A stretch of 64,000 bases of DNA from Thauera propionica (GTDB taxonomy: Bacteria; Pseudomonadota; Gammaproteobacteria; Burkholderiales; Rhodocyclaceae), in assembly GCF_002245655.1 (NCBI RefSeq), contig NZ_NOIH01000014.1, positions 62,001-126,000 of the forward strand, given 5' to 3'. The translations under genes were made by a program, and so were the position numbers. Of the stretch, positions 35,540 through 55,426 are shown piece after piece. Below the pieces are notes generated by a model, which worked only from the letters and a program-made list of their open reading frames with translations, was not told where the DNA came from and ran no database searches. Every line of letters begins with the position of its first letter. Position 1 is the stretch's first letter.

Positions 35540-36399
35540 TCGACAAATACCTCAAGGGTTGAGGCCAAGACTTCACTGGCAAGTCGTTGATGGTCAATCC
35601 CGCGTGGTCCTTGTCGGTCAAGAACCACCTTGACTTGCGCGTTGACATATTCCTTGATGTCGTTCCGATACAGCTGGATTTGCCGCGCGTCGAACTTAAG
35701 CTTCTCGTATGTTTGACCCAGTTGCAGGTCAACGCGATTACATAGGTCGTTGGCGACGATGTAGCCGATGAGGTCGCCGATTTGTGCATCTGTCAGATTG
35801 AAGATGTCGACTTCAGGGGCTACCTCATACAGCTGACCAAGCGCTTCTGCCGCAGCGTTCCGAATGGATTCTTCGTCGACACTTCCTGTGTTCGGAAGAA
35901 CTTCTTTGACCACCTCCAGGACGAGGTCGTTTGCTGAAAGGTTCTGGGCGCGAACCCGATGGACCCAGTCGACAACTCGTGGGTCCGTGGCATCCCGTGC
36001 GGACGCAAGAAATTGCCCCAGTTGGCCGGCCCCCTGAGCCGTCGCTCTCATGGTGGCCGCTGCTCGTCGCGGGCCGCCCATTCCCTTGCTGACCATGCTC
36101 TTGGTCGCACTGCGCAAAGCTTCGCGCCCCCCGCCACCAAGGAATGCCGACATGCCAGAACGGGCTGGAGCAAAGCGGCGGTCAGGCGCTAGCGCAGGCC
36201 CGGTCACATCACCGTCTTCACCGCCAGCCGCGTCGCCCTGCCCGTCAGCGTTGGCGTCGTTGGCATCAGCTGTAGGAGGGCCTTCGCCATCACCAGGCGC
36301 AGGACTGTCTCCGCCATTGCCGCCTTCGGGCGGCGACAGCCACTCAGGATCAAATGGGGAGCGGGAGCCACCACCTTTGCTTGATGTTGACGTTCCCAT
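35536..36399 (-). CDS. qatB: QatB protein
   Basis: 287 residues of no known enzyme class. The first ~90 residues are Gly/Ser/Asp-rich and probably disordered. The rest is helical, with RFAPARSGMSAFLGGGGREALRSATKSMVSKGMGG marking the start of the folded part. Named by its place between the KAP ATPase and the QueC-like gene. ATG shares one base with the qatA stop (TGATG) and its own stop overlaps qatC by four bases. Confidence 0.75.
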   Translation of the reverse strand: MGTSTSSKGGGSRSPFDPEWLSPPEGGNGGDSPAPGDGEGPPTADANDANADGQGDAAGGEDGDVTGPALAPDRRFAPARSGMSAFLGGGGREALRSATKSMVSKGMGGPRRAAATMRATAQGAGQLGQFLASARDATDPRVVDWVHRVRAQNLSANDLVLEVVKEVLPNTGSVDEESIRNAAAEALGQLYEVAPEVDIFNLTDAQIGDLIGYIVANDLCNRVDLQLGQTYEKLKFDARQIQLYRNDIKEYVNAQVKVVLDRQGPRGIDHQRLASEVLASTLEVFVE

Positions 36400-38240
36400 C
36401 AGCGCGCTCCTTTCCTGGCTTGTTCAATGGCTTGCTTGACCGGTCTGGAAGCATCACCGGAGGCATGCCACTGATCGAGCACAGGGCGAGCCCACGTCTG
36501 CTCATAAAGGAGAGGGACGAGCCCTGGACCGACCTCCTTGATGGGCGCCTGGGCCAGCAACGCGGCGGCCTTTGCACCAAGGTCAGGAAAGATCTTGGAG
36601 ATTTCCAGCAATGGCACAACATCTTCGGTTTGTCGCCAGTTTCGCTTTGGTGACTTCAGCTGCCACACCTTGGCCATTACCGCGTCAGCCTGACTCATTC
36701 CAGCTGCTCGAATTGCCTGTGTCAGCGGCTCATTTGCGCTGGTCGCAACCATCAGCGCATCCCGCAAAGCACGGCCTTCGGTCGTCAAGCTGTCGTCACC
36801 GAAGTCCCGCATCGCGGAGTCCCTGCTCAGGTGGAGCAATGGGCGCAGGTCCATTTCGCCGAGCGCAGGCGCAAGCCCAAGCCACTCCCTATGGAAGAAC
36901 TCATCCTTGAAGGGCTCAGGCAAGGCTCCACCTTCTCGGGTGGCCTGTTCAGCCAGTCGAATGGCATCAACACGTCCTTCCGTCGCGGAAGTGACCCGGC
37001 CTGCAAGTGCGTTTGCCAAGGCTTCGTCGCAGCGCTCCAACAGGTGCCATTTGGCCAAAGCCTTGAGGTCCAATTCAATCCCCTGAGGCTTGGCCAAGGC
37101 TGACCGGAGAAAGACAGTGTTGAGGAACCGCTTCATCAGGCGCGGATTGGCGTTTACCTTGCTCGAACTCGTGAGCAGCGGTGCCAACCCCTCAGCCAAT
37201 TCCATCAGCTCGACCAAGTGAGCGTTCTGAGGGTTGATGAGGCCCTTCAAAAATTCCAGCGTCACCGCATCACCGCGCCAACTGGTCTTGAGGCGTTCAG
37301 CGACGGCCTGAACCGCGCGAGTGAACTGACCATCGACGAACTGGCCGTCAGCAACGGCCCGCTCCAGCAGCAACAACGCCAGGTAGGCCTTTGCCTCGTT
37401 CACCCCTAGCCTTGGCACATGCAGCGGGACCTGGATAAGCTTGTCGAAGTAGTTCGTCGCAACCTCATCGCTGATGCCCGTCCCCGCAAAGTGCACTCGC
37501 ACAGCACCTCGGATGAACTCGTTGTCGGCAGCGACAACAAACGCACTGCGTTTCAGGAACAGCAGCAGGCGAATGGACTCAAGTGTCGAAATGGCCGTCT
37601 GCGGGAGACAACGATCAAGGTCGTCCACGAACACGACAAGGGTAATCTTCAGCTCCTCCAGAAGCTCCTCAAGTGCGTCTCGAAATGCCTGAATTTCGCC
37701 TGGTAGAGAGACCGGCTCGGCAGGCTTCAGTACCCCCCAATCCTCATCCTTCTCGGCCCGGTCGTCGCCAGCCTCTCCCTGTTCGTCGCTCAAGCCAAAC
37801 TTTGCGAGCGCACGTCCAATCAAGCCAATCGGAATGCCTGTGGCGATCGTTGCCGCCGCTTCGCCCCCGAGTTGAACAACTCGCAACAGATTGATGCGCT
37901 GAAGAAGCCTTTTGGCTTTCTTCACCAGTCCCTCGTCAGCGGCAGCTCGGCGCAACACTTCATCACCGACCATTTGAAGAAGAGCACTACGTGCGCCCTC
38001 AAAGTCCTGATACAGCCAAGGATTGAAGGTGACCACCACGTACGTATTCTTGTCGGGATCTGCGTCGACGTTCAGCCGTGACGCGACCATGCGTACCAAT
38101 GAGGATTTCCCAACGCCCCAGCCGCCGGATACGCCAATAGAAATGGGCTGGCCGTTGGCCTGCTGCAGAAGCTTTGCGCAGGCATCCGCAACGACGCCGA
38201 AGTTCAAGTAGTCCGTGGTTGTTTCGTTGTCATGCCACAT
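36399..38240 (-). CDS. qatA: QatA, KAP-family P-loop NTPase
   Basis: 613 residues. Walker A GVSGGWGVGKSSLVRM lies near residue 45, and the KAP Walker B region is LVVFVDDLDRCLPQ followed by RLLLFLKRSAFVVAADNEFI. KAP NTPases carry a membrane insertion between these motifs in many members; here two weakly hydrophobic stretches near residues 120-150 may be that. First gene of qatABCD. It starts only 25 bases after the hsdR stop with GGGAGGAG ahead of ATG, so it may be read from the restriction operon. Confidence 0.87.
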   Translation of the reverse strand: MWHDNETTTDYLNFGVVADACAKLLQQANGQPISIGVSGGWGVGKSSLVRMVASRLNVDADPDKNTYVVVTFNPWLYQDFEGARSALLQMVGDEVLRRAAADEGLVKKAKRLLQRINLLRVVQLGGEAAATIATGIPIGLIGRALAKFGLSDEQGEAGDDRAEKDEDWGVLKPAEPVSLPGEIQAFRDALEELLEELKITLVVFVDDLDRCLPQTAISTLESIRLLLFLKRSAFVVAADNEFIRGAVRVHFAGTGISDEVATNYFDKLIQVPLHVPRLGVNEAKAYLALLLLERAVADGQFVDGQFTRAVQAVAERLKTSWRGDAVTLEFLKGLINPQNAHLVELMELAEGLAPLLTSSSKVNANPRLMKRFLNTVFLRSALAKPQGIELDLKALAKWHLLERCDEALANALAGRVTSATEGRVDAIRLAEQATREGGALPEPFKDEFFHREWLGLAPALGEMDLRPLLHLSRDSAMRDFGDDSLTTEGRALRDALMVATSANEPLTQAIRAAGMSQADAVMAKVWQLKSPKRNWRQTEDVVPLLEISKIFPDLGAKAAALLAQAPIKEVGPGLVPLLYEQTWARPVLDQWHASGDASRPVKQAIEQARKGAR

Positions 38241-38265: not shown

Positions 38266-41200
38266 TTATAGTTGCCCGCCTACACCCTTGAACTTCTCAA
38301 CAAAGGCAGCGATCTTCTGGAAGACAGTCTGCTTCTTGGTCAGGAATTGCGGGTTCAATGGGCTCATCTTAGGCAGAACCGCATTGAGCTCCGTGCCATT
38401 CTCGGTGGCGAACTCGCGCTTCAGTGAGTTGGTGATATAGCGTTTGGCGGCTTCTGCGTTCAGGCCCTCGTCGCTAATCAGCTCTGCAGCCTCTCGCTGC
38501 TGTTCCGCTTGAGCGAAAGTGAAGAAGGCCTCAATTACGCTGGCCTTGTCGCCGATCTGGTCCAAATCGGTCTGGTTGATGAAGTCCACCACCAGACTTT
38601 CTTTCGCGCGGTTGCCCAGGCTGGCGCGAATCACACGCCGCACTTCATCCACCAGCTCAGACTTGCTTTTGGTCTTCTTGTTGTGCTCGAAAATCAGTTC
38701 CAGGATGTAGTCCAGGTTGATTTCCTGAGACTTCAATAGGTCCACCTCAAAGACCACGTCATCCCAGTCGATGGTGGATTTTTCTTTCTCGGCCCCTGCT
38801 TTCTGGCGGCGCAGCCAGTCACGTACGTCGTTGTAGGTCGAGCGATAGTCCTGAATCTTCCGCTCGGACGGAAGCGTGATGGCCTGCAGCGCGGTCAGAT
38901 CTTCATCGCCCAGGTAGTGCTTGGCCTTGAACGCCTCTACTGCGGCAGGGTCCGTCAGATCGACGCCCTGCAACGCCTTCAAACTGGCAAATTCGTCATA
39001 GTTCTGCAGCACGTTTTCGACGCGCAAGTACTCGCCGAACAGTTTGACGAAGGCCTTCTTGTCCGCCTCCTTCTCAATGGCGGCAGGGTCGGGGAAGCGT
39101 GCTTCCAGTTCCCGCACCACATCCATGAAGCCCCGACGCGCCTCACCGGTGGCCGCATCGGTGAAGCCTTCCATGTACTCCTTGTAGCTTTTCTCCAGCA
39201 CCACGTTCCTGGTGTTCTTGTCACCAAACAGGGTGATGGCATCGATGGTGGCCTGCTCCAGGTCTCGGAAGGTGACGATGTTGCCGAAGGTCTTGGTGGC
39301 GTCATAAATGCGGTTGGTGCGCGAATAGGCCTGCATCAGCCCGTGGTAGCGCAGGTTCTTGTCGACAAAAAGCGTGTTGAGCGTGGGGGCATCAAAACCG
39401 GTGAGGAACATGCCGACCACAATCAGCAGATCGACATCCTGTTCTTTGACGCGCTTGGCCAGGTCGCGGTAATAGTTCTGGAAGCCATTGCTGTCCACAC
39501 TGAAGTTGGTCTTGAACAGCGCGTTGTAGTCGGCGATGGCCGCGCTCAGGAACTCCTTGGCGCTGCTGTTCATGGCCGACACATCAAAGCTCTCGTCCTG
39601 GATATCGCCAATCGCATCCTGCTCCTCGTTGGCAGCAAACGAGAAGATGGTGGCCACCTTCAGCGGCTTGTCGCTGCTCTTCTGCAGTTCCCGGAAACAC
39701 TCGTAATACAGCTTGGCCGCATCCACGCTGCTGACGGCGAACATGGCATTGAAGCCCTTGTTGCCCGGTTGCAGGCGGTGGGTCTTCTGCCGGAAGTTGT
39801 TCAGGATGTACCGGGTAATCTCGCGGATGCGATCCGGGTGCAGCAGGGCTTGCCGGTTCTCCGCCGCACTCAGCTTCTTCTCGTCCTGTTCGGTCTCGAT
39901 GGCCTTGAATTGCGGGCGCACATCGTTGTAGTCCACCTTGAACTTGAGCACCTTCTCGTCGCGGATCGCATCAGTGATCACGTACGCGTGCAGCTCACGG
40001 CCAAACACGCTGGCCGTGGTTTCGGCGCCCAGTGCGTTCTGCGGGAAAATGGGCGTGCCGGTGAAACCGAACTGGTAGAACTTCTTGAACTTCTTCTTCA
40101 GGTTCTTCTGGGCCTCGCCAAACTGGCTGCGGTGGCACTCATCAAAGATGAACACCACCTGCTTGCCGTAGATGGGCAAGTCCGGCTCGCTCTTCATCAG
40201 GTTGTTGAGCTTCTGGATGGTGGTGACGACGATCTTGTTGTCGTCCTTTTCCAGGTTGCGCTTCAGGCCCGCCGTGCTGTCCGAGCCGTTGACGCTGTCC
40301 GGCGAGAAGCGCTGGTATTCCTTCATGGTCTGGTAGTCCAGATCCTTGCGGTCCACCACGAAGAACACCTTATCGATGAAGTCCAGCTCCGTGGCCAGGC
40401 GCGCTGCCTTGAAGCTGGTCAAGGTCTTGCCGCTGCCGGTGGTGTGCCAGATATAGCCGCCGCTTTCCGTGTTGCTCCAGTTCCTGGCCTGATAGCTGCT
40501 CTTGATCTTCCACAGAATGCGTTCCGTGGCGGCGATCTGGTAAGGCCGCATCACCAGCAGCGTATTGCTGACATCGAACACCGAGTAATGCAGCAGCACA
40601 TTGAGCAAGGTGTGCTTCTGGAAGAAGGTGGCCGTGAAGTCCTTCAGGTCCTTGATCAGCGTGTTGTCCGCCTTCGCCCAGTTCATGGTGAAGTCGAAAC
40701 TGTTCTTGTTGCGCTGCGTGGTATTGGCAAAGTAACGGGTGTCGGTGCCGTTGGAGATCACGAACAGCTGCAGATACCTGAACAAGGAATGCTCGCTGTT
40801 GAAGCTCTCCTTGCTGTAGCGATGCACCTGGTTGAAGGCTTCCCGGATCGCCACGCCGCGCTTCTTCAGCTCCACCTGCACCAGCGGCAGACCATTGACC
40901 AGAATCGTCACGTCATAGCGGTTGGCATGACTGCCCGTCTGCTCGAACTGCTTGATCACCTGCACCTTGTTGCGGGCGATGTTCTTCTTGTCCAGCAGGT
41001 AGATGTTCTGGATGCGTCCATCGTCAAAGATAAAGTCGTGGATGTAGTCGTCGTGAACCTTGCGGGTCTTTTCAACGATGCCCTCGCTGGGCTTGTCCAG
41101 CCAGGTTTCCACGAAGCGCAGCCATTCGCCCTCGGTGAACTGAACGGCGTTGAGCGCCTGCAGTTGCACACGCACGTTGGCCAGCAAGGCTTCGGGCGTC

Positions 41201-41364
41201 TTGATGGACGAGGCGAACTCGTAGCCCTGATTGACCAGATCCTGGATCAGCTCCCGTTCCAGGTCGCTTTCGCTCTGGTAGTGCTCGGCAACCTTCCACT
41301 CCCGGGTGTACTTGTCCAGAACAATGAAATTATTGGATTCGGCGATGGCCTTGTAATCAAGCAT
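38266..41364 (-). CDS. hsdR: type I restriction enzyme R subunit (EcoR124I/type IC family)
   Basis: 1032 residues. The nuclease core is [22 protein letters not shown] (PD-ExK type), helicase motif I is [13 protein letters not shown], motif [15 protein letters not shown], motif [11 protein letters not shown] and motif [11 protein letters not shown]. The N-terminus [13 protein letters not shown] and the whole length match EcoR124I-type HsdR very closely as I recall it. ATG at 41364 (MLDYKA) is preferred to 41382: it has AGAGG upstream and the expected length. It overlaps the PrrC-like gene by eight bases. It cuts unmodified DNA after ATP-driven translocation. Confidence 0.96.
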
Positions 41365-42673
41365 TCTTGGCCTCTTGCTCATTGAAGCGGTAGGTTTCGC
41401 TCAAAAATGAAACCAGTTCAGCAAGCCTTTCCTTATCAGAGTCTTCGATCTCAGCCACTTCTTCACCTGCGTGCGCAGAATGACTAGAAAAATTCAGGAT
41501 TCTGCTTACGAATGGATCCGGGACACCATCCGCAGTCTTCTCAAGCAAATCTTCCCATCGTGGATAGCCAAGGAATGTCGCAGTCTTTTCGAGTATATTT
41601 CTCAAAAAATTGAAGTGATATTTTTTTATCTGTCCATCTCTAACCGCGCATCGTAGTTCGGCCAGCAGGAACAGGTGGTAAGAAAAGGGGTGGTCATTTG
41701 ATGAGTGCAGATCAAATCCCCCATCCGCCTTCTTTTTTAGAAGATATTTTTCGGATTGACCACGCTTGTAAACCCATGAGGAATTACCTTCCTGATTTAC
41801 CCTCTTCAAATCATTGTTGAACTCGTTGTGCAGAACATTGTAGAAGAGAGGACTGTGTGTCGTTACAACAAACTTCAGCCCCTTGCCATCGGTGAAAGAA
41901 CTGCGCTTTATCAATCCAGCCAAATCGACTGCAAGTGCAATGAGATGACTATCATCCAAGGACGACACCGGGTCATCAATAAAGACATACTCAAGGTTGT
42001 TGAATTTGTCAGTGACTCTGTCACCCACGTTGGGTTCATCCAATGTCGATACAACTTGCTGGAGAAGAGTGAAGAAAACGCTCCAGATAAAATTACTCTC
42101 TTCGCCCCTGGATATCTTTATAGCCTTGTAGTGCCCTTGGGCTGTATGGTGCTCGTCATTTGCAGAATCAGCGGTAGATTCATCTCTCTCAGGAACACTG
42201 GACGCCACCTGAAAAACAATTTCCGTGAAGGCTGGAATGGTAATCTCTACCTCTTTCCCATTAAAGTCCTTGGCTTTCCTCTTGTATTCCTCATTGAAGA
42301 TGGGATTGGCATTGCTACCCGTATATCGCTGGAAGTTAGAAACAATATTTCCATCTTCACCCAGCTCTTTGAGTAAGGTAATGAGCCAGTCCGTGAAAGT
42401 ATTCGGTTGAATTTTCAGCTTTGGCTCGGAGTCAGCCTCCAAGTCGTTATCCCAGTAAAACAAGTCTTCGGTAAAGGCGCTATAGTAAAGTATCTTATTG
42501 CGCGCGGGGGCTGCTTCATCATCGTTCTGCTGCCCATTATTCTTCGGGGCTACAAGCTCTTTGAACGTACGGGACAGCCGTGTTTTTCCCGATCCATTAA
42601 ACGCATAGATCAGTTGCACTTTCTTATTGGCGTCGATTAGCTTCTTGGCGATTTCTTTCAGTGTTTTGCTCAC
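41357..42673 (-). CDS. prrC: PrrC-like anticodon nuclease (ABC-type ATPase, AAA_13)
   Basis: 438 residues. An ABC-type ATPase occupies about residues 1-270: Walker [17 protein letters not shown], signature-like [12 protein letters not shown], Walker [14 protein letters not shown] and H-loop VTTHSPL. The C-terminal domain has R358-x3-E362 in [12 protein letters not shown] and His at 398 and 401 in NFSSHSAH, the R-x3-E...H layout of the PrrC/RloC nuclease site. Gene order hsdM-hsdS-this-hsdR equals prrA-B-C-D of EcoprrI, also a type IC system. PrrC cuts tRNA-Lys when the restriction enzyme is inhibited by phage. The gene is AT-rich. Another AAA_13 role (RloA-like) is possible. Confidence 0.75.
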
Positions 42674-42674
42674 T

Positions 42675-43823
42675 TTATTCCCCCGCAGCCTCTGGTTTCG
42701 AGAAGTTCAGAAGCAGATTGCGGTAATGCTCATATTGCTTCTGACGCAACTCAATTTCGCGGGGTAAGCCGTCGCTGATGGAGCCAGTCAAGGCGTCGAA
42801 TTTATCCAAGATGTCAACGATTCGCTTCTTATCTTCTGGAGGTGGATTCGGGATGCGAATACTTTCAAGACTCTTCTTATTTAGCTTTGGCTGAGCTGCT
42901 CCTGAGATATAAGGCGTCAAGTCGATGCTATTCAAATAGTATTCAACGTACTTTCGCTCGACAGATGTTTTGAATTTCAGTACGTGAGCATGATTATTCA
43001 CCCAGCTCTTTCCGCTAATACTAAATGCGATTGGCGTGTTTCGTGCTAATAGATTCGCTCCATCTTCGGAAACAAGTAGAAGGTCGCAATCAAAGATATA
43101 GTCTTTGACATAGTCAACGATTCCCGAGGCTCCGTAATATGGGATATCACCTGGCTCTCTTAGCCCGCTAGTGATTGGCCTTCGCATTGAGTCGAGGTTC
43201 TCTGCGAGATCCCCCAGCGCCTTCCACTCCACTTCCCCTTCTTCAAAACTCAACAACTTGTCGCGATAGTAGTTGTATTGTTTCTTGCGGGCGGTCAGCT
43301 CGGCGGTCAGCTCGGCGGTCAGCTCGGTGAAGCTGTCCAGTATGCGAACGATTTCGGCCTGGATTTCAAGCGATTTTTTGGGGTTGTCCGGGCAGGGGAT
43401 GGGAATGGGGATTTCTAAAATCTCACTGGGTCGCAATGCGGGTATGCCCGCACCGTGTTGCTTACCGGCCAGACGCACCTGATTGAGTTTTAAGAGATGG
43501 TAAACATATCGGTTCTCAACTGCCTCAGTATTTGGTAGCACTACATAGCAGTGCGCATTGGCATAAAACTTGGATGTGACGAAATTAACAAAACCAGCAG
43601 ACGCGCCACCCTGACTTATTATGGTTTTGTTTTCTGAGTAATTGAATGTGTCGGTAAACCCGGAATGCGTTACCCCTCCGTTATAGGCCGGGTAAGGTCC
43701 GTTTTCACAAAGCAGTTCTTTATTTAGCTGGCGGCCTTTTTCTAATCTGATGACATCCCCCAGCTCTTTCCACTCCACTGCCTCCCCATCCAGCAGCTTT
43801 TCCAGAAAACTCACACCGCTCAT
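42675..43823 (-). CDS. hsdS: type I restriction enzyme specificity subunit
   Basis: 382 residues with two target-recognition domains (about 1-150 and 195-345), each followed by a helical spacer. The central spacer contains the tetrapeptide repeat [18 protein letters not shown], the repeat whose copy number (two or three) differs between EcoR124I and EcoR124II and changes the gap in the recognised sequence. Both TRDs are AT-richer than hsdM. Start overlaps hsdM by four bases; PrrC-like gene follows after one base. The recognition sequence cannot be read from this. Confidence 0.93.
43291..43326 (-). repeat. three exact 12-bp tandem repeats in hsdS (ELTA units)
   Basis: GCGGTCAGCTCG occurs three times head to tail at 43291, 43303 and 43315. 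Read on the minus strand each encodes Glu-Leu-Thr-Ala. The unit is in frame, so slippage or recombination would add or remove four residues without breaking hsdS. Confidence 0.95.
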
Positions 43824-45379
43824 ACCTCCAACTCCCCGCCTTCAATCTCCGCCACAATGGCATCAATGTCCTTGCGCAGTTGGTCGATCCGGGCAACGGT
43901 GGTTTTCAGTTCGGCATTGAGCTGGGCGATGTCCACCACCTCGCGGTTGTCTTTGGCTTCCACGTAGCTGCTGACCGACAGGTTGTAGTTGTTGGCAGCC
44001 ACATCTTCCAACGGCACCGACCTGGCGAAGTGGTCGACGGTTTCCTTGCTGTCGAACACCGCCATGATCTGGTCGATATGCGCATCCAGCAGCAGGTTGT
44101 TATTGGTGCCCTTCTTGAACAAGTCGCTGGCGTCGATGAACTGGATGTCGGTATCGGTCTTGTGCTTGGACAGCACCAGGATGTTCACGGCGATGGTGGT
44201 GCCGTAGAACAGGTTGGGCGCCAGCGATATCACGGTTTCGACGTAGTTGTTATCCACCAGATACTGGCGGATTTTCTGCTCGGCACCGCCCCGGTAAAAG
44301 ATGCCGGGGAAGCAGACGATGGCGGCGCGCCCCTTGCTGGAAAGGTAGCTGAGCGCGTGCAGCACAAAGGCAAAGTCGGCCTTGGACTTGGGCGCAAGCA
44401 CACCGGCCGGGGCGAAGCGTTCGTCGTTGATCAGCGTCGGGTCGTCGCTGCCGATCCATTTCACTGAATACGGCGGGTTGGAGACGATGGCGTCGAAGGG
44501 CTTTTCATCGCCAAAGTGCGGCTCTGTCAGCGTGTTGCCGAGCTGGATGTTGAACTTGTCGTAGTTGATGTTGTGCAGGAACATGTTCATCCGCGCCAGG
44601 TTGTACGTGGTGTGGTTGATTTCCTGCCCAAAGAAGCCGTCTTCGATGATGTGATCGTCAAACTGCTTCTTGGCTTGCAGCAGCAACGAGCCAGAACCGC
44701 AGGCCGGGTCGTAGATCTTGTTGATGCTGGATTGCCCATGCATCGCCAACCGGGCAATCAACTTGGAGACCTGCTGCGGGGTGAAGAACTCGCCGCCTGA
44801 TTTCCCCGCATTGGCCGCGTAGTTGGAAATCAGGAACTCGTAGGCGTCGCCGAACAGGTCGATGTGGCTGGCGTCGAAGCCGCCGAAATCCAGCTCAGCC
44901 ACACGTTTGAGCACCTTGGCCAAGCGCTCGTTCTTGTCTTTGACGGTGTTGCCCAGGCGGTTGCTGGTGGTGTCGAAATCCGCAAACAGGCCTTTGATGT
45001 CGTGCTCGGAGGGGTAGCCGTTGGCCGACGCTTCGATGGCCTTGAAGATGTTGGCCAGGTCCGTGTTCAGGCTTTCGTTGGTGTTGGCATTGGCGGCCAC
45101 GTTGGCGAAGAGCTGGCTGGGGTAGATGAAATAGCCCTTGGTCTTGATGGCGTCATCCTTGGCGGCCGCAATGTTAGGGTCATCGTCTGCCATGGCGGCG
45201 TAATTGACGGACGGGTCGCCGCCGGTGATGTAGTCGGTGAAGTTTTCGCTGATGAAGCGGTAGAACAGGGTGCCGAGCACGTATTGCTTGAAGTCCCAGC
45301 CATCGACGGCACCGCGCACGTCATTGGCGATATCCCAGATCTTGCGCTGTAGCGCGGCGCGTTGTTCGTTGCTTGTCAT
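43820..45379 (-). CDS. hsdM: type I restriction enzyme M subunit (N6-adenine methyltransferase)
   Basis: 519 residues. SAM-binding [12 protein letters not shown] and catalytic NPPYSVKW are intact, and the N-terminal HsdM helical domain is present ([35 protein letters not shown]). With HsdS it methylates adenines at the target. It begins the hsdM-hsdS-prrC-hsdR run. Confidence 0.97.
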
Positions 45380-45413: not shown

Positions 45414-45599
45414 TCAGGCTTGACGCTTGAACTGCAGGAAATGGGAAGTTATGCCAAGAGGGCCGCTGCCTATCTCCCGGTTTTCTTCGTCTTGCGTCGA
45501 TAGAACCCCTTGATTCCTCGGGCGGTTGCCGGTGTATCGCCCAGTCTCTATCGCCCATCTATCGACAATAGAATGCAGGTTGTCCGATAGGCTGCTCAT
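45414..45599 (-). CDS. possible small protein between the AlbA-like gene and hsdM
   Basis: 61 codons starting [20 protein letters not shown]. Its ATG overlaps the stop of the upstream gene (ATGA) and its end lies 34 bases before hsdM, so it would fill an otherwise empty 216-bp gap in a tight operon. No family is recognised and no good independent ribosome-binding site is seen. It could be chance or a remnant. Confidence 0.35.
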
Positions 45600-47233
45600 A
45601 CCACCGCCCAGTACCGCCGCCAGCGGTTGTTGCCTTCAAAGCGGACTTCCCCGCGCTTGATCAATTCTTCCAGCGCACGCTTGACCTGCTTGGGATGGAT
45701 TTCGCCGCCAACGCGCTGGTGAATGTCGCTGATGGCCGACCTGGGGTAGCGTTGCAGGTCTTCCAACACCAGTGCGGCCAGGCGATGCGGCTCGATGCGC
45801 TTGAGAGTGGTCCCGCCGGTGAACTGGAGACTGCGCAGCAGGCCTGGATCAACAAAGTAACGCGTGGCCTGGGTACGCCCAGCGCTTTGCACCAACTGCC
45901 AGTCCAGCAGGCGCTTGAGCCAGGCTTGCAATGCTTCTACCGATGGCAGTTCAAGCAACGTTGCCAGCTCGCGTGCCGTCAGCGCATCGTGCTGCGCCAA
46001 CAGACCCAATGCGATCCGCTCACGCTGCGTTAGCTGATAGGTCTGGTCCGCTTTCGCAATGAGGTCGATGACCTCGGGCTTGAGGATGCGGCGGCGCACC
46101 GTCACCTGCACGCGGTCGTGGGTCTCGATCAATTCGGGAGCCGGGCGACCTTGCGAGAGCAGAACCTCGTAGATCTTGTCGAAGCCGCTGCCTTCCCGCT
46201 CCATCAGCTTCAAGTCATGGAACAGCCGTGCCAGGTGTTCATTACGGCGTACCGTGGTGTGGAGGATGTTCCGCGGCGAGACGCCCAGCGGCAAAGGTCC
46301 GGGGTTGACCACTTCCAGCCGGTCCGAATGTAGGTTCAGGAAGATGTCGCCGCGCTGGGTGTAGGGGCGGTGTACCAACGCGTTGACCAATAGTTCGCGC
46401 ACCACGATCTCATCGAAAGCGGGCACATTCTGACGGTACAGGCCATCAGGAAGCTCGTAGCGCTCGCGGAAGTCAGGCACCTCCTGCCAGACCGCTTCGA
46501 TCAATTCCATCGGGCTTTGCGTGTGGTCGTCCCAGACCAGCTTGTTGACCTTCTGTCCGTGCTCGTCGTACTTGATGAACTGGATGACCGGAGCGGTGGT
46601 CAGTTGAGCGCGATGATGCTGACGCCCCAGACAGAGCACGCCCAGGTTGGTGAGGTTCGGTCCTTGTGCGAGCTGATAGTGATCGAGCAGTTCGTCGTCG
46701 GACTTCTCCTTCACGGAAGGCTTGACGCGATCCGATGCACGCAAGGCTGCGAGCAGCTTGTGGCGTTTGGCGGCATCACTCTCGGTACGGGGAACATGCA
46801 GGGTGGATTGCGTTTCCCACGGCAAGGCGGAACGCTCGTTGGCCAGACGCATCACGTCATCGCCCGTCACCGGCTTGCTTTGATCGGCTACGCGCAGGAA
46901 GTAGCGGCCATCCGTGGTGGATGCGACTGCCATGGATCGCGGAATGCGCAACTCGATGTATTGGCCGCCATTAGGGGCGGTGACGATATCCGGCAACACC
47001 GTCACGTTGACTGTGCGCTCTGCCAGTTTGCGACGTAGTGTGTCAGGCAGGTCTGGGGGAATGCGCTGATCGGCTGGAGGCTCGCTCTGACCATCCTCGA
47101 TCCCCAGCAGAAGACGACCACCAGTTGCATTGGCAAAGGCAATGCAATCCTTGGCGATTTCGTTCCAGTCTGCCGTCTTGCCGGTCACGGCCCGCAAGGA
47201 CTTCTGGTCGAGGAGTTGCCCTTCCAAGCTCAC
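45596..47233 (-). CDS. AlbA_2/Schlafen-type DNA-binding domain with HATPase_c_4 domain
   Basis: 545 residues. The N-terminal part has DCIAFANATGGRLLLGIEDG, the AlbA_2 (Schlafen AAA_4) signature. A GHKL ATPase region follows, with VVRELLVNALVHRPY as its N-box and EGSGFDKIYE as a later glycine motif. The last ~150 residues hold winged-helix segments (ALTARELATLLELPSVEALQAWLKRLLDWQLV). Such proteins are often found beside type I systems and are thought to be ATP-linked transcription regulators. It is 22 bases downstream of the HTH gene. Confidence 0.75.
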   Translation of the reverse strand: MSLEGQLLDQKSLRAVTGKTADWNEIAKDCIAFANATGGRLLLGIEDGQSEPPADQRIPPDLPDTLRRKLAERTVNVTVLPDIVTAPNGGQYIELRIPRSMAVASTTDGRYFLRVADQSKPVTGDDVMRLANERSALPWETQSTLHVPRTESDAAKRHKLLAALRASDRVKPSVKEKSDDELLDHYQLAQGPNLTNLGVLCLGRQHHRAQLTTAPVIQFIKYDEHGQKVNKLVWDDHTQSPMELIEAVWQEVPDFRERYELPDGLYRQNVPAFDEIVVRELLVNALVHRPYTQRGDIFLNLHSDRLEVVNPGPLPLGVSPRNILHTTVRRNEHLARLFHDLKLMEREGSGFDKIYEVLLSQGRPAPELIETHDRVQVTVRRRILKPEVIDLIAKADQTYQLTQRERIALGLLAQHDALTARELATLLELPSVEALQAWLKRLLDWQLVQSAGRTQATRYFVDPGLLRSLQFTGGTTLKRIEPHRLAALVLEDLQRYPRSAISDIHQRVGGEIHPKQVKRALEELIKRGEVRFEGNNRWRRYWAVV

Positions 47234-47255
47234 GCGTCACCTTCCCCTGCTGGAT

Positions 47256-47462
47256 TCATTTTTGTTCGCTCCCATCGCCCGATGCTTCATCGGCACCTCC
47301 AGCTCGTACCCACTCATCCACTTCCGAGAGCTGGAACTTCCACAGCCGCCCTACGCGGTGCGCGGGCAGACCCTTGCGCTCGCGCCAGCGGTACACGGTG
47401 TCCTTGGCCACGCCCAAGTGCTGGGCGACGTGCTCGGCGGTAACCCACGGTTCTGTACTCAT
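47256..47462 (-). CDS. excisionase-like helix-turn-helix protein
   Basis: 68 residues with a MerR/Xis-type winged helix: WVTAEHVAQHLGVAKDTVYRWRERKGLPAHRVGRLWKF. It heads the leftward defence block and lies directly next to the repeat-rich non-coding stretch at 47590-48022, which may hold its binding sites. It could be the recombination directionality factor of the element or a regulator of the restriction operon. Confidence 0.75.
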   Translation of the reverse strand: MSTEPWVTAEHVAQHLGVAKDTVYRWRERKGLPAHRVGRLWKFQLSEVDEWVRAGGADEASGDGSEQK

Positions 47463-47598
47463 GTCGATGGCGCTCGGAGGTTGCGATTGAAAGTCGTCTT
47501 AAATCGTCTGAAGTCTACCATTTAGGTGCTGTGGAAGCATCCCGATTGCCTTTGACTGCGTTCGCTGTAAGTTGAATGTGGTAACAAAGGGCGCAGCA

Positions 47599-47734
47599 CC
47601 ACACTGTCACCACCATGGCTACACACTGTCGCCATAGGGTGACCACATTGTCGCCACCATCCTTGCCACCCATTCAACACATTGTTCGCACAAGGTTGCC
47701 ACGTTGTTGCCAGCATGCCGCCACACTGTTTACA
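47599..47734. repeat. six degenerate 14-bp repeats phased at 22 bp (iteron-like)
   Basis: Copies start at 47599, 47621, 47643, 47677, 47699 and 47721. Each contains CAC(A/G)(C/T)TGT and most read CCACAYTGTYGCCA. Start-to-start distances are 22, 22, 34, 22 and 22 bp, i.e. two helical turns with one 12-bp interruption. The array lies in a 608-bp gene-free stretch (47463-48070). This geometry fits a protein binding cooperatively along one face of DNA. Confidence 0.75.
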
Positions 47735-47754
47735 CAGTTAGCCGGCAGCCCGAC

Positions 47755-48022
47755 CTGATCGCACAGATAATTTTTGCTGGTCACAAAGCGCCATGCCACG
47801 TTACTCCCTCGCCTGGGCACAAGATAAGCAATAACAGTCAAGGGATTTGGAATGCACGCCCGCCGATGTTGGTATGTACGCAATCGGAAATAGGACTTCT
47901 GGTGCCTGACCATGTGCCCGAACAGCAGAGCGTTGGAAAGAACGCAATGCACAATCAGTATGTACGCAAGCCTAAATAGGGAGTAACGGGGCATGTGACC
48001 AGCTAAAAGTCATTGCGATCAG
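47755..48022. repeat. large imperfect inverted repeat enclosing two 23-bp direct repeats
   Basis: The left arm (47755-47808) and right arm (47979-48022) pair in three blocks: CTGATCGCA; TTTTTGCTGGTCAC (one mismatch); CATGCCACGTTACTCCC (one mismatch), separated by short unpaired inserts. Between the arms, two 23-bp direct repeats start with GTATGTACGCAA and end in AAATAGG at 47872-47894 and 47958-47980 (20 of 23 identical); the second abuts the right arm. No convincing gene lies inside. Confidence 0.75.
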
Positions 48023-48070
48023 CGCCGTAGGATTTGGAAACCCGATGGCTGGAAACAGCGCATTTTTTGT

Positions 48071-48808
48071 CTACTCAGTTGGCGGCATGTCCGCATTGCC
48101 GCCGCTGCGGAAATGGGCGTCAACTACGCGGGCGATGTCAGCAGGTTGTGCTCCTGCGTTGAATGCAAAGCGCAGCGCCTGCTCCAATCGTTGCCAACCT
48201 TGCGGGGAAGCAATATTGCTATCAACAGTTTCGCTCAGACGGAACATCAGCCCTTCCAGCAGCTCTTCGTCCCCCACGTCCGCAGCAGCCTGCTCCGCCA
48301 GTGCCAAAAGTGCGCTACGTGCTGACTCAAGTGATTCACTTGGCACCCCGGCCAATGCCGTAGGTGTGGTGATGACACGATCCACCCTGACGACTGTCAC
48401 CAGATCAAGGGCCTGATCGACGCCTGGCTCGATCTCCATGCGGATCAGCACATCGCCAGCCAACAGAAAGCGCGTCTTGATCAGCCCCGGCTGTTCATCC
48501 TGAAACAACCACACTGGCTGCGTGTTGGCCAGCAGCGTGCCTAGTACAAGCTTGCTGTCATCCAGCGCCCCGCGATCATGCCAAGGGTGCAACACGTCGG
48601 TACGCAGGCGGCCGCCTTCCACACCGAGGTGGTGCAACAGGCCGACCAGTCGTTTGGCGGAGATCACCTGCTCCTTGCCACGCAGCCAGACCGAGAGGTT
48701 GGCAGTGCGGATACCGGTGGCCTCGGCGATCCGCCCCAGCGTTTCCCCGCGCAGTCGTATCAAGGCAGCGGCAAGGGCTGGCAATTGTTCGTTGGTAAGG
48801 CTTGGCAT
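48071..48808 (-). CDS. HTH regulator of the AAA+ gene (hypothetical)
   Basis: 245 residues. An N-terminal helix-turn-helix, LGRIAEATGIRTANLSVWLRG, is followed by a ~180-residue domain I do not recognise. Start chosen at MPSLTNEQLP because it places the HTH at the usual distance. It is divergent from the AAA+ gene at 48938, and matching operator-like boxes lie in front of both genes, so it probably represses both. Confidence 0.65.
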   Translation of the reverse strand: MPSLTNEQLPALAAALIRLRGETLGRIAEATGIRTANLSVWLRGKEQVISAKRLVGLLHHLGVEGGRLRTDVLHPWHDRGALDDSKLVLGTLLANTQPVWLFQDEQPGLIKTRFLLAGDVLIRMEIEPGVDQALDLVTVVRVDRVITTPTALAGVPSESLESARSALLALAEQAAADVGDEELLEGLMFRLSETVDSNIASPQGWQRLEQALRFAFNAGAQPADIARVVDAHFRSGGNADMPPTE

Positions 48809-48826
48809 ATCGGGCTCTGCGAATTC

Positions 48827-48916
48827 ACTGTAAATCACTATAAGACTTATTGGCCGACAAGACGAGCGCGCGGAGTTTGGCGATTCGTGTAAATTGGCGT
48901 TATAGTAAATTATAGT
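48827..48916. promoter_or_regulatory. mirror-image pairs of TTAYAGT operator boxes
   Basis: On the plus strand TTATAGT occurs at 48900-48906 and 48910-48916. On the minus strand TTATAGT (48843-48837) and TTACAGT (48833-48827) occur with the same 10-bp spacing. Each divergent gene thus has TTATAGT-N3-TTAYAGT in front of it, the layout expected for a shared autoregulator. Confidence 0.65.
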
Positions 48917-48937
48917 TAGATGTTTTGAGAGGCCATC

Positions 48938-50512
48938 ATGCGCAAGCCGAAGCAAATCCGTCCGTTGCGCCTGCGGGAATACGAAGCTGCCATTACTGCG
49001 CTCAAGGAGCAGCATCCCTGGCTTGCCCGGCAGATCGTCGAACCCGCGCCGGGGCATCTGGCTTTGGTAGCACATCTGTTTGCCCAGGTGGAATGCCTGC
49101 TGCCGCCCACAGTGCTCGCACTCAAGGGCTCACTGTCGGTGAGTTGCAACCGGGATCGCCTGGTCATTCATTACCAGCCGCCGCGACGCCACAGCGAACG
49201 TGCAGCGGCAGTGTTCGATCTGATTGCCCAGACCAAGCACCTTTCGCTGCAACAATGCCCCGTCTGCGGCGCACAGGTTATCGGGGACGGCATCCGTCCC
49301 CAGCGCTGCCCGCAACATGACGGCATCCAAGGGTTGTTTGCCGAAGAAGTGCGCCGCAGCCGCCAGCTCATCGTCGAACAGGGGGTACAGCAGGTGGTGC
49401 ACGATCTGGGCAAGGTGACGACCGAAGATGTACGTGCCGCCGTGGCGGCTGAAAATGAGCCGGTCTTGAGTGAAGCCGAACCGGAGCAGGTTCAGGAGCA
49501 GCCGACAGAAGCCGCTAAATCAGCGCCCTTGCCGAGCATCGTCTTTCTCGATGAAGCCGGGCTGGAGGCGTTCGTGGATCGCCACCGACCAAAAGGCGAC
49601 GACAAGTTCAAGCGCGCACAGGCGATGGCAGAGCGGATCAAGCGGGCGGGCCATGGCAGCCGCCAACTGGGCCTGCTACCCCCGGACTGGAAAGCCCTGC
49701 TGGATGAGTTCGCGCAGGCTTTCCCAAACTTCCATGAACTGGCCGAGCTGCTGCGTGATCACTTCGCCTTGTCCAGTCTGGGCGATGGCCGCGTGTCCTG
49801 GCCTGCCGTGTTGCTGGTCGGCCCGGCGGGCATTGGTAAAACCGAGGCGGCACGCTGGCTGGCCGATCAGCTCGTGCTGCCGTTTCGGGTCTTCGATATG
49901 GCGAGCACGCAATCGAGTTCGCCGCTCGCAGGTTCCGAATCGTTCTGGAGCAATTCCGAGCCAGGCCAGCTTTTCGAGCTGCTGGCCTACCAGCCGCTGG
50001 CCAACCCGGTGGTGGTGCTCGATGAGCTGGATAAGGCCAGCAACGGGCGACCGCAATACGATCCGCTGGCGGCGCTCTATACCTTGCTGGAACCGCGCAG
50101 TGCGCGGAATTTCATCGACCTGTCGATCCGTGATTTCTCCATCGACGCCAGTCATGTCAATTGGATGGCGACCGCGAATGAGCTGGAAGCGATTCCAGGG
50201 CCGCTGCGCTCACGGCTGACAGTGCTGCACATTCAACCGCCCAAGCCGGAGCAGGTCAGAAGCATTGCGCAGTCGATCTACAACCGGCTCCGCGACGAGT
50301 CGAGCTGGGGCACTGCCTTTGCCGAGCGACTGAATGATGATGTCCTGTCCCGTCTGCAAGCCTTGCCGCCGCGCAGTGTGCGTCTGGTTCTGCAGCGGGC
50401 CTTGGGCTCGGCAGCTCGTGATGACCGAGGAGTCGTCCAGGTGCAAGACATCAGGCCGCTGGTGGAGATCAGCCGCCGTGGCGTTGGCTTTGTCAGCGAG
50501 GGATGGAATTGA
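48938..50512 (+). CDS. AAA+ ATPase with N-terminal zinc-ribbon-like motif
   Basis: 524 residues. The N-terminal ~130 include CPVCGAQVIGDGIRPQRCPQH, a possible zinc site. The AAA+ core has Walker A GPAGIGKTEAARWLA (about 300), Walker B VVVLDELDKAS, sensor 1 MATANELEAIPGPLRSR with the arginine finger, and a C-terminal lid domain. The core resembles Lon-type AAA modules, but no protease domain follows. It may remodel a protein or DNA complex. It converges with the five-gene operon at 50519-52979. Confidence 0.7.
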   Translation: MRKPKQIRPLRLREYEAAITALKEQHPWLARQIVEPAPGHLALVAHLFAQVECLLPPTVLALKGSLSVSCNRDRLVIHYQPPRRHSERAAAVFDLIAQTKHLSLQQCPVCGAQVIGDGIRPQRCPQHDGIQGLFAEEVRRSRQLIVEQGVQQVVHDLGKVTTEDVRAAVAAENEPVLSEAEPEQVQEQPTEAAKSAPLPSIVFLDEAGLEAFVDRHRPKGDDKFKRAQAMAERIKRAGHGSRQLGLLPPDWKALLDEFAQAFPNFHELAELLRDHFALSSLGDGRVSWPAVLLVGPAGIGKTEAARWLADQLVLPFRVFDMASTQSSSPLAGSESFWSNSEPGQLFELLAYQPLANPVVVLDELDKASNGRPQYDPLAALYTLLEPRSARNFIDLSIRDFSIDASHVNWMATANELEAIPGPLRSRLTVLHIQPPKPEQVRSIAQSIYNRLRDESSWGTAFAERLNDDVLSRLQALPPRSVRLVLQRALGSAARDDRGVVQVQDIRPLVEISRRGVGFVSEGWN

Positions 50513-53661: not shown

Positions 53662-53790
53662 CTAGCGATGTCACGTAAAACGGCTAGTGATGTCACGTAC
53701 CGATGACTAGCGATGTCACGTGGACAATTTACAGAAGTGGCACCAAAGCCAGCTCTGGCAAGGGTTTCCGTCTTGCTAGTGATGTCACGT
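53662..53790. repeat. four iterons CTAGYGATGTCACGT next to repA
   Basis: Copies at 53662-53676, 53684-53698, 53707-53721 and 53776-53790 are identical except C/T at position 5. Start spacings are 22, 23 and 69 bp (3 x 23). The array ends 25 bp from the repA stop. Together with the DnaA-like box and AT palindrome it forms a plausible replication origin. Confidence 0.85.
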
Positions 53791-53814
53791 GGACAGCCCG
53801 AAAAGCCCACAGGC

Positions 53815-54837
53815 TTATCCCCTCCTCTTGGTCGCTGCGATATGCAGGCGTGCAGGGGTGAGGATCAGGCAATCTTTCGTTTCCTCGATGTGGTTCCGAG
53901 CCTCGGGATAGAACAGCAGCGCTTCGTTTAGCCGGAGGCGGAAATTGGTCTTGAAGTTGGCCAGCCCCTTGGGAGTATTCGCATAGCCAGAGCCGAACTG
54001 CATCATCAGGCCAGTCCATGGCACGTGAACAAGCCGTTTGCCTCCTTTGCTTGCCCCAACGTTCAAAGTGAACATGCGGTAGACCAGCCATGTGTAGATG
54101 TCCATCGCCAGAGGCGACTTTATGAGCGCACGTAGTGCCTCCATCTTGAGTGGCACGGGGGCGCTGATCAGACGTTTAAAAAAGTCTGTGCTCAAGGTGA
54201 TCGAGCTTTCCCATGCCCCTCGTCGCACCGTATCGCGAGAGCTCCAGAAGACGAACGCCTCCTCCGCGATGAGGATGTTTCTGACGTGCAGCGCATCGCC
54301 ATCTGCACCACCGACGGTAATCATCGAATGCACCAGCCGCAAGCTCTGGTCACGCACTCGCGCGATGTACCGGCCATCATTGTGCAGATCAAGACTTTGC
54401 AAGAATGCCGCCTGGGAACGCCCAAGCGATAGATCGGGACTACCGGTGCGAACGGCTTCAGTACACATCCACGCCAGCAGCAGGCGCGGCAGCCCGCCAT
54501 ACGGTACGCCATAGTCGGGGTTGGCTACGATGGAAAGGCTCAGCTTGCCCGTGCCGCGTTTGAAATGGTTGGTCTTGGGGTCTGTATGAGGAAGTGTGGC
54601 CTGCGCCAGAAAGTGTGCGATGTAGCCTGTAGCGCCTGCGTTGCGGGCCTGCTCGATCTCCAGCTCCACAGCTTCGTCGATCAAGTGGCGTACCCGTGGA
54701 GTCAATGCATGGGCGGCGTCGTGCTGCTCCGCCTGTTTCGTCACTTCGGCAGCTTTCTGCTTGATCCACGGCAGCGGATCGCGCTTGGGCGTGGCTTCTG
54801 CCAAGCCAGTGTCCAGCAAACTGCCCATGCTGCGCAT
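53815..54837 (-). CDS. repA: plasmid replication initiator RepA
   Basis: 340 residues. It fits the plasmid RepA_C family: NPDYGVPYGGLPRLLLAWMCTEAVRTGSP, LGRSQAAFLQSLDL, then the winged-helix region MDIYTWLVYRMF and FKTNFRLRLNEALLFYPEA. It should bind the four iterons found just past its end and start replication there. Its presence suggests that the element replicates outside the chromosome, at least for a time. Confidence 0.88.
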   Translation of the reverse strand: MRSMGSLLDTGLAEATPKRDPLPWIKQKAAEVTKQAEQHDAAHALTPRVRHLIDEAVELEIEQARNAGATGYIAHFLAQATLPHTDPKTNHFKRGTGKLSLSIVANPDYGVPYGGLPRLLLAWMCTEAVRTGSPDLSLGRSQAAFLQSLDLHNDGRYIARVRDQSLRLVHSMITVGGADGDALHVRNILIAEEAFVFWSSRDTVRRGAWESSITLSTDFFKRLISAPVPLKMEALRALIKSPLAMDIYTWLVYRMFTLNVGASKGGKRLVHVPWTGLMMQFGSGYANTPKGLANFKTNFRLRLNEALLFYPEARNHIEETKDCLILTPARLHIAATKRRG

Positions 54838-54875
54838 CGTCGAATCCTGACCTTTGACCTGCGAGATCGCGGCGA

Positions 54876-55088
54876 TCAGGGATGGACAGCGTTGTTGCTG
54901 GCGGTACGGGCGGCTGCGGCCTTCTGTCCGAGCCAGGTATCAATTTCGTGTTCCAGCCATCCGACAACCCGCTTGTTGATCTGGATGCATACTGGGAATG
55001 TCGGATCATCGCGTGTGATCCGCCAGAGCGTTACGTCATTGATGCCGCCAAGCTTTTCGCAGACGGCCTTGCGGCGTAGAATTTTCAT
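54876..55088 (-). CDS. AlpA-like phage/element regulator
   Basis: 70 residues from ATG at 55086-55088, which has AGGAGG eight bases upstream. The HTH is RRKAVCEKLGGINDVTLWRITRDDPTFPVCIQINKRVVGWLEHEIDTWL, the AlpA/Xis-type winged helix. It is upstream of repA on the same strand and may control repA or excision. Confidence 0.8.
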   Translation of the reverse strand: MKILRRKAVCEKLGGINDVTLWRITRDDPTFPVCIQINKRVVGWLEHEIDTWLGQKAAAARTASNNAVHP

Positions 55089-55277
55089 CGTCCCCACCTC
55101 CTGCACATTGAAAGTCGATGCAGGAAGTTTCAGGCGACGACCCGGCAGCGGTCACGGATTCCCAGAAGGGAATTTTTGCAGCAAAAAATCCGACGGCAGC
55201 GATGCGGGACAGGCAAGCGATGCGCGGACCTCGCTCCGGGTAGCAGCGGCTAAAGTGTATATGGAAGTGACTACAAG

Positions 55278-55346: not shown

Positions 55347-55375
55347 GCGCTGCCTGACCGAGGGCTGCAATGCAC

Positions 55376-55414: not shown

Positions 55415-55426
55415 ACGGGCACTTCA

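What the first reader, a model, noticed from the sequence alone, without database searches (positions are those of the whole stretch)
47755..48022. Large imperfect inverted repeat with two 23-bp direct repeats in a gene-free stretch of the element
The arms 47755-47808 and 47979-48022 match in three collinear blocks, and the enclosed 170 bp hold two 23-bp direct repeats (20/23 identical), the second abutting the right arm. No ORF inside is convincing and no known class (IS, retron, CRISPR) fits. It could be a small non-autonomous element, a transfer or partition site, or a structured RNA.
Basis: seen in the sequence. Interest (0 to 1): 0.72.

Follow-up and report, generated by a model that had tools for sequence, protein, structure and literature searches.

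The report
Transfer-start site borrowed from conjugative plasmids
A gene-free stretch of a chromosomal defence island looks like a copy of the start-of-transfer site of a family of conjugative plasmids that carry a recombinase-like gene beside that site instead of a standard relaxase, so the island can probably hitch a ride between bacteria.

Summary
The inverted repeat is real and exceeds chance. It is part of a larger cis-acting site, about 47600-48022: an 11-bp-phased array (47600-47743), then two arms of three boxes each around a 170-bp loop with four (not two) copies of a 13-bp motif. The layout recurs in 10 other island-type loci from several genera with different cargo, and in Dot/Icm-type (MPF_I) plasmids, in the gap between a divergent DotD/TraH operon and a tyrosine-recombinase-like gene. 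A GTTAC-centred inverted repeat lies in that gap in 13 of 14 such records (about eight lineages). The two arms change concordantly. Four standard relaxase families are absent from 10 of 11 of these plasmids, and one of the ten, pND6-2, is reported conjugative. Best reading: an oriT cut by a plasmid-encoded tyrosine-recombinase-like relaxase. The window's integrative element (integrase, Qat, type I RM-PrrC, RepA, AlpA) would carry a mimic and be moved in trans (an oriT-only mobilizable element). Nicking and transfer are inferred, not shown. Main rival: a recombination or resolution site for the same enzyme. RNA, IS, retron and CRISPR readings gain no support.

The parts
47600..47743 (.). array of about thirteen 11-bp units (CACANTGTNGC-like, one 1-bp slip), one per helical turn; likely protein-binding repeats
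   Evidence: lag 11, 0 of 200 shuffles reach it; units read out; three copies at 22-bp spacing
47755..47763 (+). left arm, box A CTGATCGCA
47777..47785 (+). left arm, box B CTGGTCACA
47795..47809 (+). left arm, core box C GCCACGTTACTCCCT (GTTAC core; one mismatch to the right arm)
47813..47821 (+). inner repeat, left half CTGGGCACA
   Evidence: GGGCRC/GYGCCC pair in other loops, read by eye
47846..47858 (+). loop motif copy 1 TTTGGAATGCACG
47913..47920 (-). inner repeat, right half TGTGCCCG
47932..47944 (+). loop motif copy 3 GTTGGAAAGAACG
47978..47992 (-). right arm, core box C AGGGAGTAACGGGGC
47994..48002 (-). right arm, box B TGTGACCAG
48014..48022 (-). right arm, box A TGCGATCAG
31582..32778 (+). 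tyrosine integrase of the carrier element (Phage_integrase 2e-23, Arm-DNA-bind_3, Phage_int_M), next to the ychF 3' end at 31360
33540..38240 (-). Qat defence genes QatD, QatC, QatB, QatA (cargo)
38266..45379 (-). type I restriction-modification genes HsdR, PrrC-like (41357-42673), HsdS, HsdM (cargo)
45596..47462 (-). Schlafen/AlbA-domain ATPase and small HTH_17 protein left of the site
48071..50512 (.). 246-aa protein without a known family (-) and AAA ATPase (+), right of the site; lost in some relatives that keep the site
53662..54837 (.). RepA_C plasmid-type replication protein (53815-54837, -) with four 20-nt repeats of its own (53662-53795)
54876..55088 (-). AlpA-like regulator near the right end of the carrier element

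Best explanation
The stretch 47600-48022 is an origin of conjugative transfer (oriT) of a kind used by Dot/Icm-type (MPF_I) conjugative plasmids. In those plasmids it lies between two divergent transfer operons, directly upstream of a gene for a divergent tyrosine-recombinase-like protein. That protein most likely acts as the relaxase: it would bind the two inverted GTTAC-core arms, nick one strand there through its conserved tyrosine and pilot the strand into the Dot/Icm-type channel. The 11-bp array and the paired loop motifs would bind accessory (relaxosome or partition-type) proteins. The window's integrative element carries the site but none of four standard relaxase families, and no relative of the recombinase-like protein or of DotI was found in its genome, so it would be a relaxase-less, oriT-only mobilizable element moved in trans after excision by its own integrase. 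Shown: the site, its architecture, its conservation, concordant arm changes, and linkage to the recombinase-like gene and transfer operons. Inferred: nicking, the identity of the relaxase, transfer, and the role of the array.
For: (1) Whole site conserved in 10 other island-type loci as cargo and neighbours change: HTH gene absent or replaced in L012/L014; 246-aa and AAA genes missing right of the site in L012 and L015. (2) Same layout in MPF_I plasmids: 16 records with a hit to the recombinase-like protein were opened; in 12 an annotated DotD/TraH gene lies upstream and divergent, in one (L044) the same order with DotC annotated, in one (L026) that side is cut by the record start; 2 (L045, L046) have another context. 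GTTAC-centred inverted repeat in the gap in 13 of those 14. (3) 11-bp array: 15 of 18 loci beat all 200 shuffles, a 16th all but 2. (4) Arms change together: 16 concordant double changes at 8 positions, shuffle mean 4.1; 0 of 2000 reach the cells, 4 of 2000 the positions. (5) PF03432, PF08751, PF07514, PF03389 absent from 10 of 11 such plasmids and from the window's genome; control R64 rings for PF03432 at 1.6e-33. (6) pND6-2, one of these, is stated to be experimentally conjugative (passage in PMC11826091). (7) Catalytic R, K, Y, R, H and nucleophile Y invariant in 8 aligned proteins, matching the RK(H/Y)RH pentad plus Y described for such relaxases (passages of PMC8152469).
Against: No nicking or transfer data exist here. 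A full catalytic set fits an active recombinase equally well. The Acinetobacter plasmid L025 has the gene order but no GTTAC inverted repeat, and it also carries a broken MobA/MobL match. The repeat is weak in the pND6-2 group (one mismatch, 14-bp loop; three near-identical records), and L022 and L024 show no significant 11-bp array. Of 254 plasmid records with a homologue of the L017 protein at E<=1e-5, PLSDB types 67 as conjugative and 64 as mobilizable, so many homologues sit beside some other typed relaxase; only 16 records were opened. Only four relaxase families were sought by six-frame search, and only 20 proteins of pSP13-1 were scanned against Pfam, so an unrecognised relaxase elsewhere on these plasmids is possible. 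The window's left core has an uncompensated mismatch, and L011/L016 have another.
Confidence: 0.68

Rival explanations
1. It is a site-specific recombination site (dimer resolution or integration/cointegration) for the same tyrosine-recombinase-like enzyme. Plasmids would use it to resolve multimers; islands carrying it could form cointegrates with the plasmid and be carried along (conduction).
For: The enzyme keeps the full catalytic set. Two inverted core arms are the normal substrate shape of tyrosine recombinases (established knowledge). Loops swap as a cassette between the arms: L004 vs L011 left 0.97, loop 0.46, right 0.86; window vs L014 0.81, 0.27, 0.95.
Against: Arms are 100-211 bp apart in most loci, far from the 6-8 bp of ordinary crossover sites (recalled). 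The gene sits inside the transfer operons of plasmids in which the four relaxase families sought were not found. Loop swaps can equally come from homologous recombination in the arms.
Confidence: 0.17
2. The site, or at least its 11-bp array, is a centromere (parC-like) bound by a ParR- or StbA-type protein and used to partition plasmids; islands carry it to be partitioned while excised and replicating from RepA.
For: 11-bp-phased array in 16 of 18 loci. ParM/StbA-family genes are annotated downstream of DotB/IcmT in the adjacent operon in several of these plasmids. R388 stbDRs are 9-bp repeats spaced by 2 nt next to oriT (passages of PMC3098194); in R1 a 22-bp fragment holds two ParR iterons (passages of PMC4949242).
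Against: Does not explain the conserved, concordantly changing GTTAC arms, nor their linkage to the recombinase-like gene; the array is absent in L022 and L024, where arms and gene are kept.
Confidence: 0.08
3. A structured small RNA or an RNA element of the flanking genes.
For: Strong predicted fold, z -4.10 on the minus strand and -3.37 on the plus strand; an essential sRNA lies next to the oriT of SGI1, another element with a tyrosine-recombinase-type relaxase (passages of PMC9299015).
Against: No Rfam match, no promoter- or terminator-like site in 47450-48120, both strands fold alike, and an 11-bp array points to double-stranded DNA binding. Neighbouring genes on both sides change while the site stays.
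Confidence: 0.04
4. A vegetative replication origin (oriV) of the element or of the plasmids.
For: Iteron-like array plus inverted repeats; the element encodes a RepA_C protein.
Against: RepA has its own four 20-nt repeats right beside it at 53662-53795, 6 kb from this site, and the plasmids keep the site in the transfer region rather than beside an annotated rep gene in the stretches opened.
Confidence: 0.03

Closest known systems
oriT and MpsA/MpsB of Salmonella genomic island 1 (PMC6414798, passages)
   Same: oriT with several inverted repeats beside a gene of the tyrosine-recombinase superfamily proposed as atypical relaxase; on a mobilizable island
   Different: SGI1 encodes its own MpsA and MpsB and is moved by IncA/IncC plasmids; here the island lacks the gene, which sits in the transfer region of MPF_I plasmids. 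No sequence comparison with MpsA was made.
MobK / oriT of pIGRK (PMC8152469, passages)
   Same: tyrosine-recombinase-like relaxase with the RK(H/Y)RH pentad and a nucleophilic tyrosine shown to be needed for nicking and transfer; oriT with direct and inverted repeats
   Different: small mobilizable plasmid; the paper says known members lack the core-binding domain, whereas 4 of 8 proteins here match a SAM-like N-terminal integrase domain. pIGRK was not in the collection, so no alignment.
MOBM family, TcpM of pCW3 (passages of PMC12857230)
   Same: tyrosine-recombinase-derived relaxase of a large conjugative plasmid
   Different: Gram-positive plasmid with another transfer system; homology beyond the superfamily was not tested here.
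iOriT class of integrative mobilizable elements and oriT mimicry (passages of PMC11389934)
   Same: integrated element that carries an oriT but no relaxase and uses helper MOB and MPF
   Different: the helper family proposed here (Dot/Icm plasmids with a tyrosine-recombinase-like enzyme) was not found described in my searches.
R388 stbDRs next to oriT (passages of PMC3098194)
   Same: 9-bp repeats spaced by 2 nt (11-bp period) next to an oriT, bound by StbA and affecting both transfer and stability
   Different: different sequence; no StbA gene was sought here.

Membership tests
oriT (origin of conjugative transfer) | cis-acting site nicked by a relaxase and sufficient for mobilization | not testable with these tools
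   needs nicking and mating assays
oriT (origin of conjugative transfer) | position beside the relaxase gene and transfer operons in the conjugative parent | tested here: met
   13 of 14 records with the gene order have the GTTAC repeat in the gap
oriT (origin of conjugative transfer) | inverted repeats with conserved core and repeats for accessory proteins | tested here: met
tyrosine-recombinase-like relaxases (MOBM/TcpM, MpsA, MobK) | tyrosine-recombinase catalytic residues including the nucleophilic Tyr | tested here: met
   invariant R181, K213, Y293, R296, H319, Y329 (L017 numbering) in 8 proteins
tyrosine-recombinase-like relaxases (MOBM/TcpM, MpsA, MobK) | relaxase activity on the cognate oriT, needed for transfer | not testable with these tools
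   no bench data
tyrosine-recombinase-like relaxases (MOBM/TcpM, MpsA, MobK) | sequence homology to TcpM, MpsA or MobK beyond the superfamily | not tested
   pIGRK record absent; TcpM and MpsA not fetched
oriT-only integrative mobilizable element (iOriT) | integrated element with its own integrase | tested here: met
   integrase at 31582; 3 of 11 relatives have ychF 235-683 bp from the EamA gene that lies at 56747 here
oriT-only integrative mobilizable element (iOriT) | no relaxase of its own | tested here: met
   four relaxase families absent from the whole genome at E<=0.01; no relative of the L017 recombinase-like protein at E<=1e-15. Other relaxase families not sought
oriT-only integrative mobilizable element (iOriT) | oriT similar to that of a helper | tested here: met
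   right-arm match of 82% over 73 bp to the Aeromonas plasmid L008; shared boxes and array
parC-type centromere | array of about 11-bp repeats bound by ParR next to parMR | tested here: inconclusive
   11-bp array present in 16 of 18 loci and ParM/StbA genes in the neighbouring operon of several plasmids; binding untested and no ParR gene sought
known structured RNA family | match to an Rfam covariance model | tested here: not met
   no match up to E 5 in 46800-49200

The most novel reading that the evidence does not exclude
A widespread but unrecognised class of conjugation start system: Dot/Icm-type (MPF_I) plasmids of Proteobacteria use a new family of tyrosine-recombinase-like relaxases on a two-armed, symmetric oriT with an 11-bp-phased array, and the loop between the arms behaves as an exchangeable cassette, perhaps setting which helper recognises the site. 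Defence islands in many genera have copied this oriT to travel without any transfer gene of their own.
Probability: 0.45. Interest if true: 0.85.

Novelty: new variant of a known kind. Interest (0 to 1): 0.7.

Why it matters
Ten of the eleven Dot/Icm plasmids searched show none of four standard relaxase families, and PLSDB types those ten as non-mobilizable. A candidate relaxase and oriT would correct mobility typing and make their transfer directly testable. The finding also names the likely vehicle for chromosomal and plasmid-borne defence islands (Qat, type I RM) that have no visible transfer genes, and gives a sequence signature, GTTAC arms plus an 11-bp array, with which to find further hitchhikers.

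Tried and rejected
IS, retron, CRISPR: nothing in the 47470-48070 stretch supports them; no Rfam match, and the only copy in the genome is this one. oriV: RepA has its own repeats beside it. Promoter/terminator element: none found, and neighbours change while the site stays. Phage origin: no match in 50,697 phage records; 0 viral contigs match the right-arm pattern, and the search for related loci found no relative of the recombinase-like protein there. Relatives of the host: no second copy in 149 others. Exact att repeats of the element: no shared 11-mer between 31301-31600 and 54801-56600, no tRNA, so the ends are bracketed only. Solved structures: no PDB relative at E<=0.01, so no fold argument; the plasmid proteins were not eligible for structure prediction and were not submitted. 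NCBIfam: 2 of 8 proteins weakly match XerA. Literature: no description of this site or of a relaxase for this plasmid type was found; the library holds open PMC papers only. PMC10432156 (passages) treats the X. euvesicatoria Icm/Dot system without the terms integrase or recombinase.

Rows dropped: L010 (same as L004), L005 (site cut by a transposon remnant in the left-arm/loop region) and L028 (same as L021) were left out (20 rows). One search used 18 rows (also without L013, L027). One search used 15 rows (also without L004, L016, L024); for L022 the right box B nearest the core was taken, and the shuffle does not correct for relatedness.

Full report
OBSERVATION. The inverted repeat is present at the stated place and exceeds dinucleotide shuffles. 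It resolves into three boxes per arm: A (CTGATCGCA), B (CTGGTCACA) and C (core GTTACTCCC), at 47755, 47777 and 47795 on the left and 47978, 47994 and 48014 on the right. The loop holds four copies of a 13-bp motif, and an array of 11-bp units precedes the left arm. The full feature is therefore about 47600-48022, not 47755-48022.

CARRIER. It lies in an integrative element downstream of ychF: tyrosine integrase 31582, Qat genes 33540-38240 and a PrrC-like protein at 41357, type I RM genes, Schlafen/AlbA ATPase, HTH_17, AAA, RepA_C and AlpA. In 3 of 11 relatives opened, ychF lies 235-683 bp from the EamA gene that sits at 56747 here, so most of 31.4-56.7 kb is an insertion; two more relatives (L032, L041) have an integrase-like sequence after ychF. 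Exact ends were not found.

ISLAND RELATIVES. Plasmid records: 13 with a match, 2 covering at least 80% in one place. Species-representative genomes: 7 loci with the right-arm pattern (Enterobacter, Azospira, Bordetella, Stutzerimonas, a Burkholderiaceae bacterium, Parazoarcus, Pseudomonas). E. coli: 3 of 5426 genomes, two on plasmids and one on a chromosome beside P1-like phage genes. In 10 of these loci besides the window (L003, L004, L006, L009, L011-L016) both arms and the loop are complete. Cargo to the left differs, for example HsdR/HsdM at 34-36% identity in L004 against 92%/85% in L006. In L015 the site is followed directly by the XRE gene and in L012 by the 50519 gene, the genes in between being absent; in L012 no relative of the HTH_17 gene precedes it and in L014 only a 59% one. 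The site is thus kept while its neighbours change.

CONJUGATIVE PARENTS. Right-arm matches led to Dot/Icm-type plasmids of Pseudomonas syringae and Aeromonas and from there to Bordetella flabilis. Protein search with the neighbouring recombinase-like gene found 254 plasmid records at E<=1e-5 and 238 with the second query. I opened 16 records with such a hit. In 12 an annotated DotD/TraH gene lies upstream and divergent; L044 has the same order with DotC annotated; L026 is cut by the record start; L045 and L046 have other contexts. A GTTAC-centred inverted repeat lies in the gap in 13 of those 14 records; these are about eight lineages, because L007/L026, L021/L028, L023/L027 and L024/L043/L047 are near-copies. 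Acinetobacter L025 has none. In the pND6-2 group the repeat is short and has one mismatch, and in Burkholderia L044 it is CCCGTTACAAACAG with a 33-bp loop. A P. oryzihabitans plasmid (L018) carries arms and core without a recombinase-like gene annotated within 12 kb on either side.

CONSERVATION OF STRUCTURE. Over 15 rows, left and right arm agree at 91% of 360 cells, with 16 concordant double changes at 8 positions against a shuffle mean of 4.1 cells (0 of 2000 shuffles reach the cells, 4 of 2000 the positions; relatedness not controlled). Examples are GTTCACA/TGTGAAC in P. syringae, TGGTCCC/GGGACCA in Xanthomonas, GGGCG/CGCCC in Yersinia, and an extra T/A in the Bordetella core. The window itself has one uncompensated mismatch in the left core. 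The 11-bp period beats all 200 shuffles in 15 of 18 loci, 198 of 200 in L023, and is not significant in L022 (43 of 200) and L024 (52 of 200). Loops come in at least two types that swap between otherwise similar flanks, and the four-copy motif keeps the same positions in the 170-bp loops, with one copy below the pattern in L012 and L013.

RELAXASE. PF03432, PF08751 and PF07514 match 0 of 11 plasmids; PF03389 matches 1 of 11 (Acinetobacter, two pieces, one with a stop); the window's genome has none. R64, an MPF_I plasmid with a standard relaxase, rings for PF03432 at 1.6e-33. Twenty larger proteins of pSP13-1 show no relaxase family in Pfam. pND6-2 and a relative are stated to be experimentally conjugative (passage of PMC11826091). 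The recombinase-like proteins keep R, K, Y, R, H and the nucleophilic Y in all 8 aligned but are divergent: Pfam integrase models match 4 of 8 weakly, and no PDB chain matches the profile at E<=0.01. No relative of the L017 protein was found in the window's genome or 120 relatives at E<=1e-15, and no DotI relative in the window's genome; both searches lack a positive control. Against the reading, 131 of the 254 records with a homologue are typed mobilizable or conjugative by PLSDB, so the enzyme does not always stand alone.

MECHANISM. Most likely the site is an oriT; the plasmid's recombinase-like protein nicks it at a GTTAC arm, with accessory proteins on the 11-bp array, and the island borrows the site. 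Precedents from passages read: MpsA and oriT of SGI1, MobK, TcpM/MOBM, 11-bp-phased repeats beside oriT in R388 and ParR iterons of R1, and oriT-only integrative elements. The same data allow a recombination or resolution site, which is the main rival.

NOVELTY. Tyrosine-recombinase-like relaxases and oriT-only elements are known kinds. This combination, in Dot/Icm-type plasmids and in Qat/RM islands, was not found in the searches named in Tried and rejected. I therefore call it a new variant of a known kind.

Noticed in passing
33540-38240: Complete-looking Qat defence gene set (QatA-D, PADLOC E 4e-26 to 1.2e-109) in the same element.
   Followed up: partly
41357-42673: PrrC-like anticodon-nuclease relative (PADLOC E 3.9e-132) inside the type I RM operon, between HsdR and HsdS.
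   Followed up: partly
53662-53795: Four 20-nt repeats beside RepA (22, 23 and 69 bp apart), probably its own replication iterons.
   Followed up: partly
L006:9869-10124: The array next to the site has expanded to 11.6 copies of a 22-bp unit at 98% match.
   Followed up: no
L018:11850-12300: P. oryzihabitans copper-resistance plasmid, typed non-mobilizable, carries arms, core and an 11-bp-spaced array without an annotated recombinase-like gene nearby: a possible oriT-only plasmid.
   Followed up: partly
L008:6297-7820: The recombinase-like ORF of the Aeromonas veronii FC951 plasmid appears frame-disrupted in the middle, like several of its transfer genes, which are annotated in pieces.
   Followed up: no
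L007, L026, L008, L018, between boxes A and B of the left arm: An extra hairpin with TTTAGGCTATT in its loop, present in these plasmid sites and absent from the island copies as read by eye.
   Followed up: no
48071-50512: A 246-aa protein with no known family and a divergent AAA ATPase travel with the site in many islands; no PADLOC match for either.
   Followed up: partly
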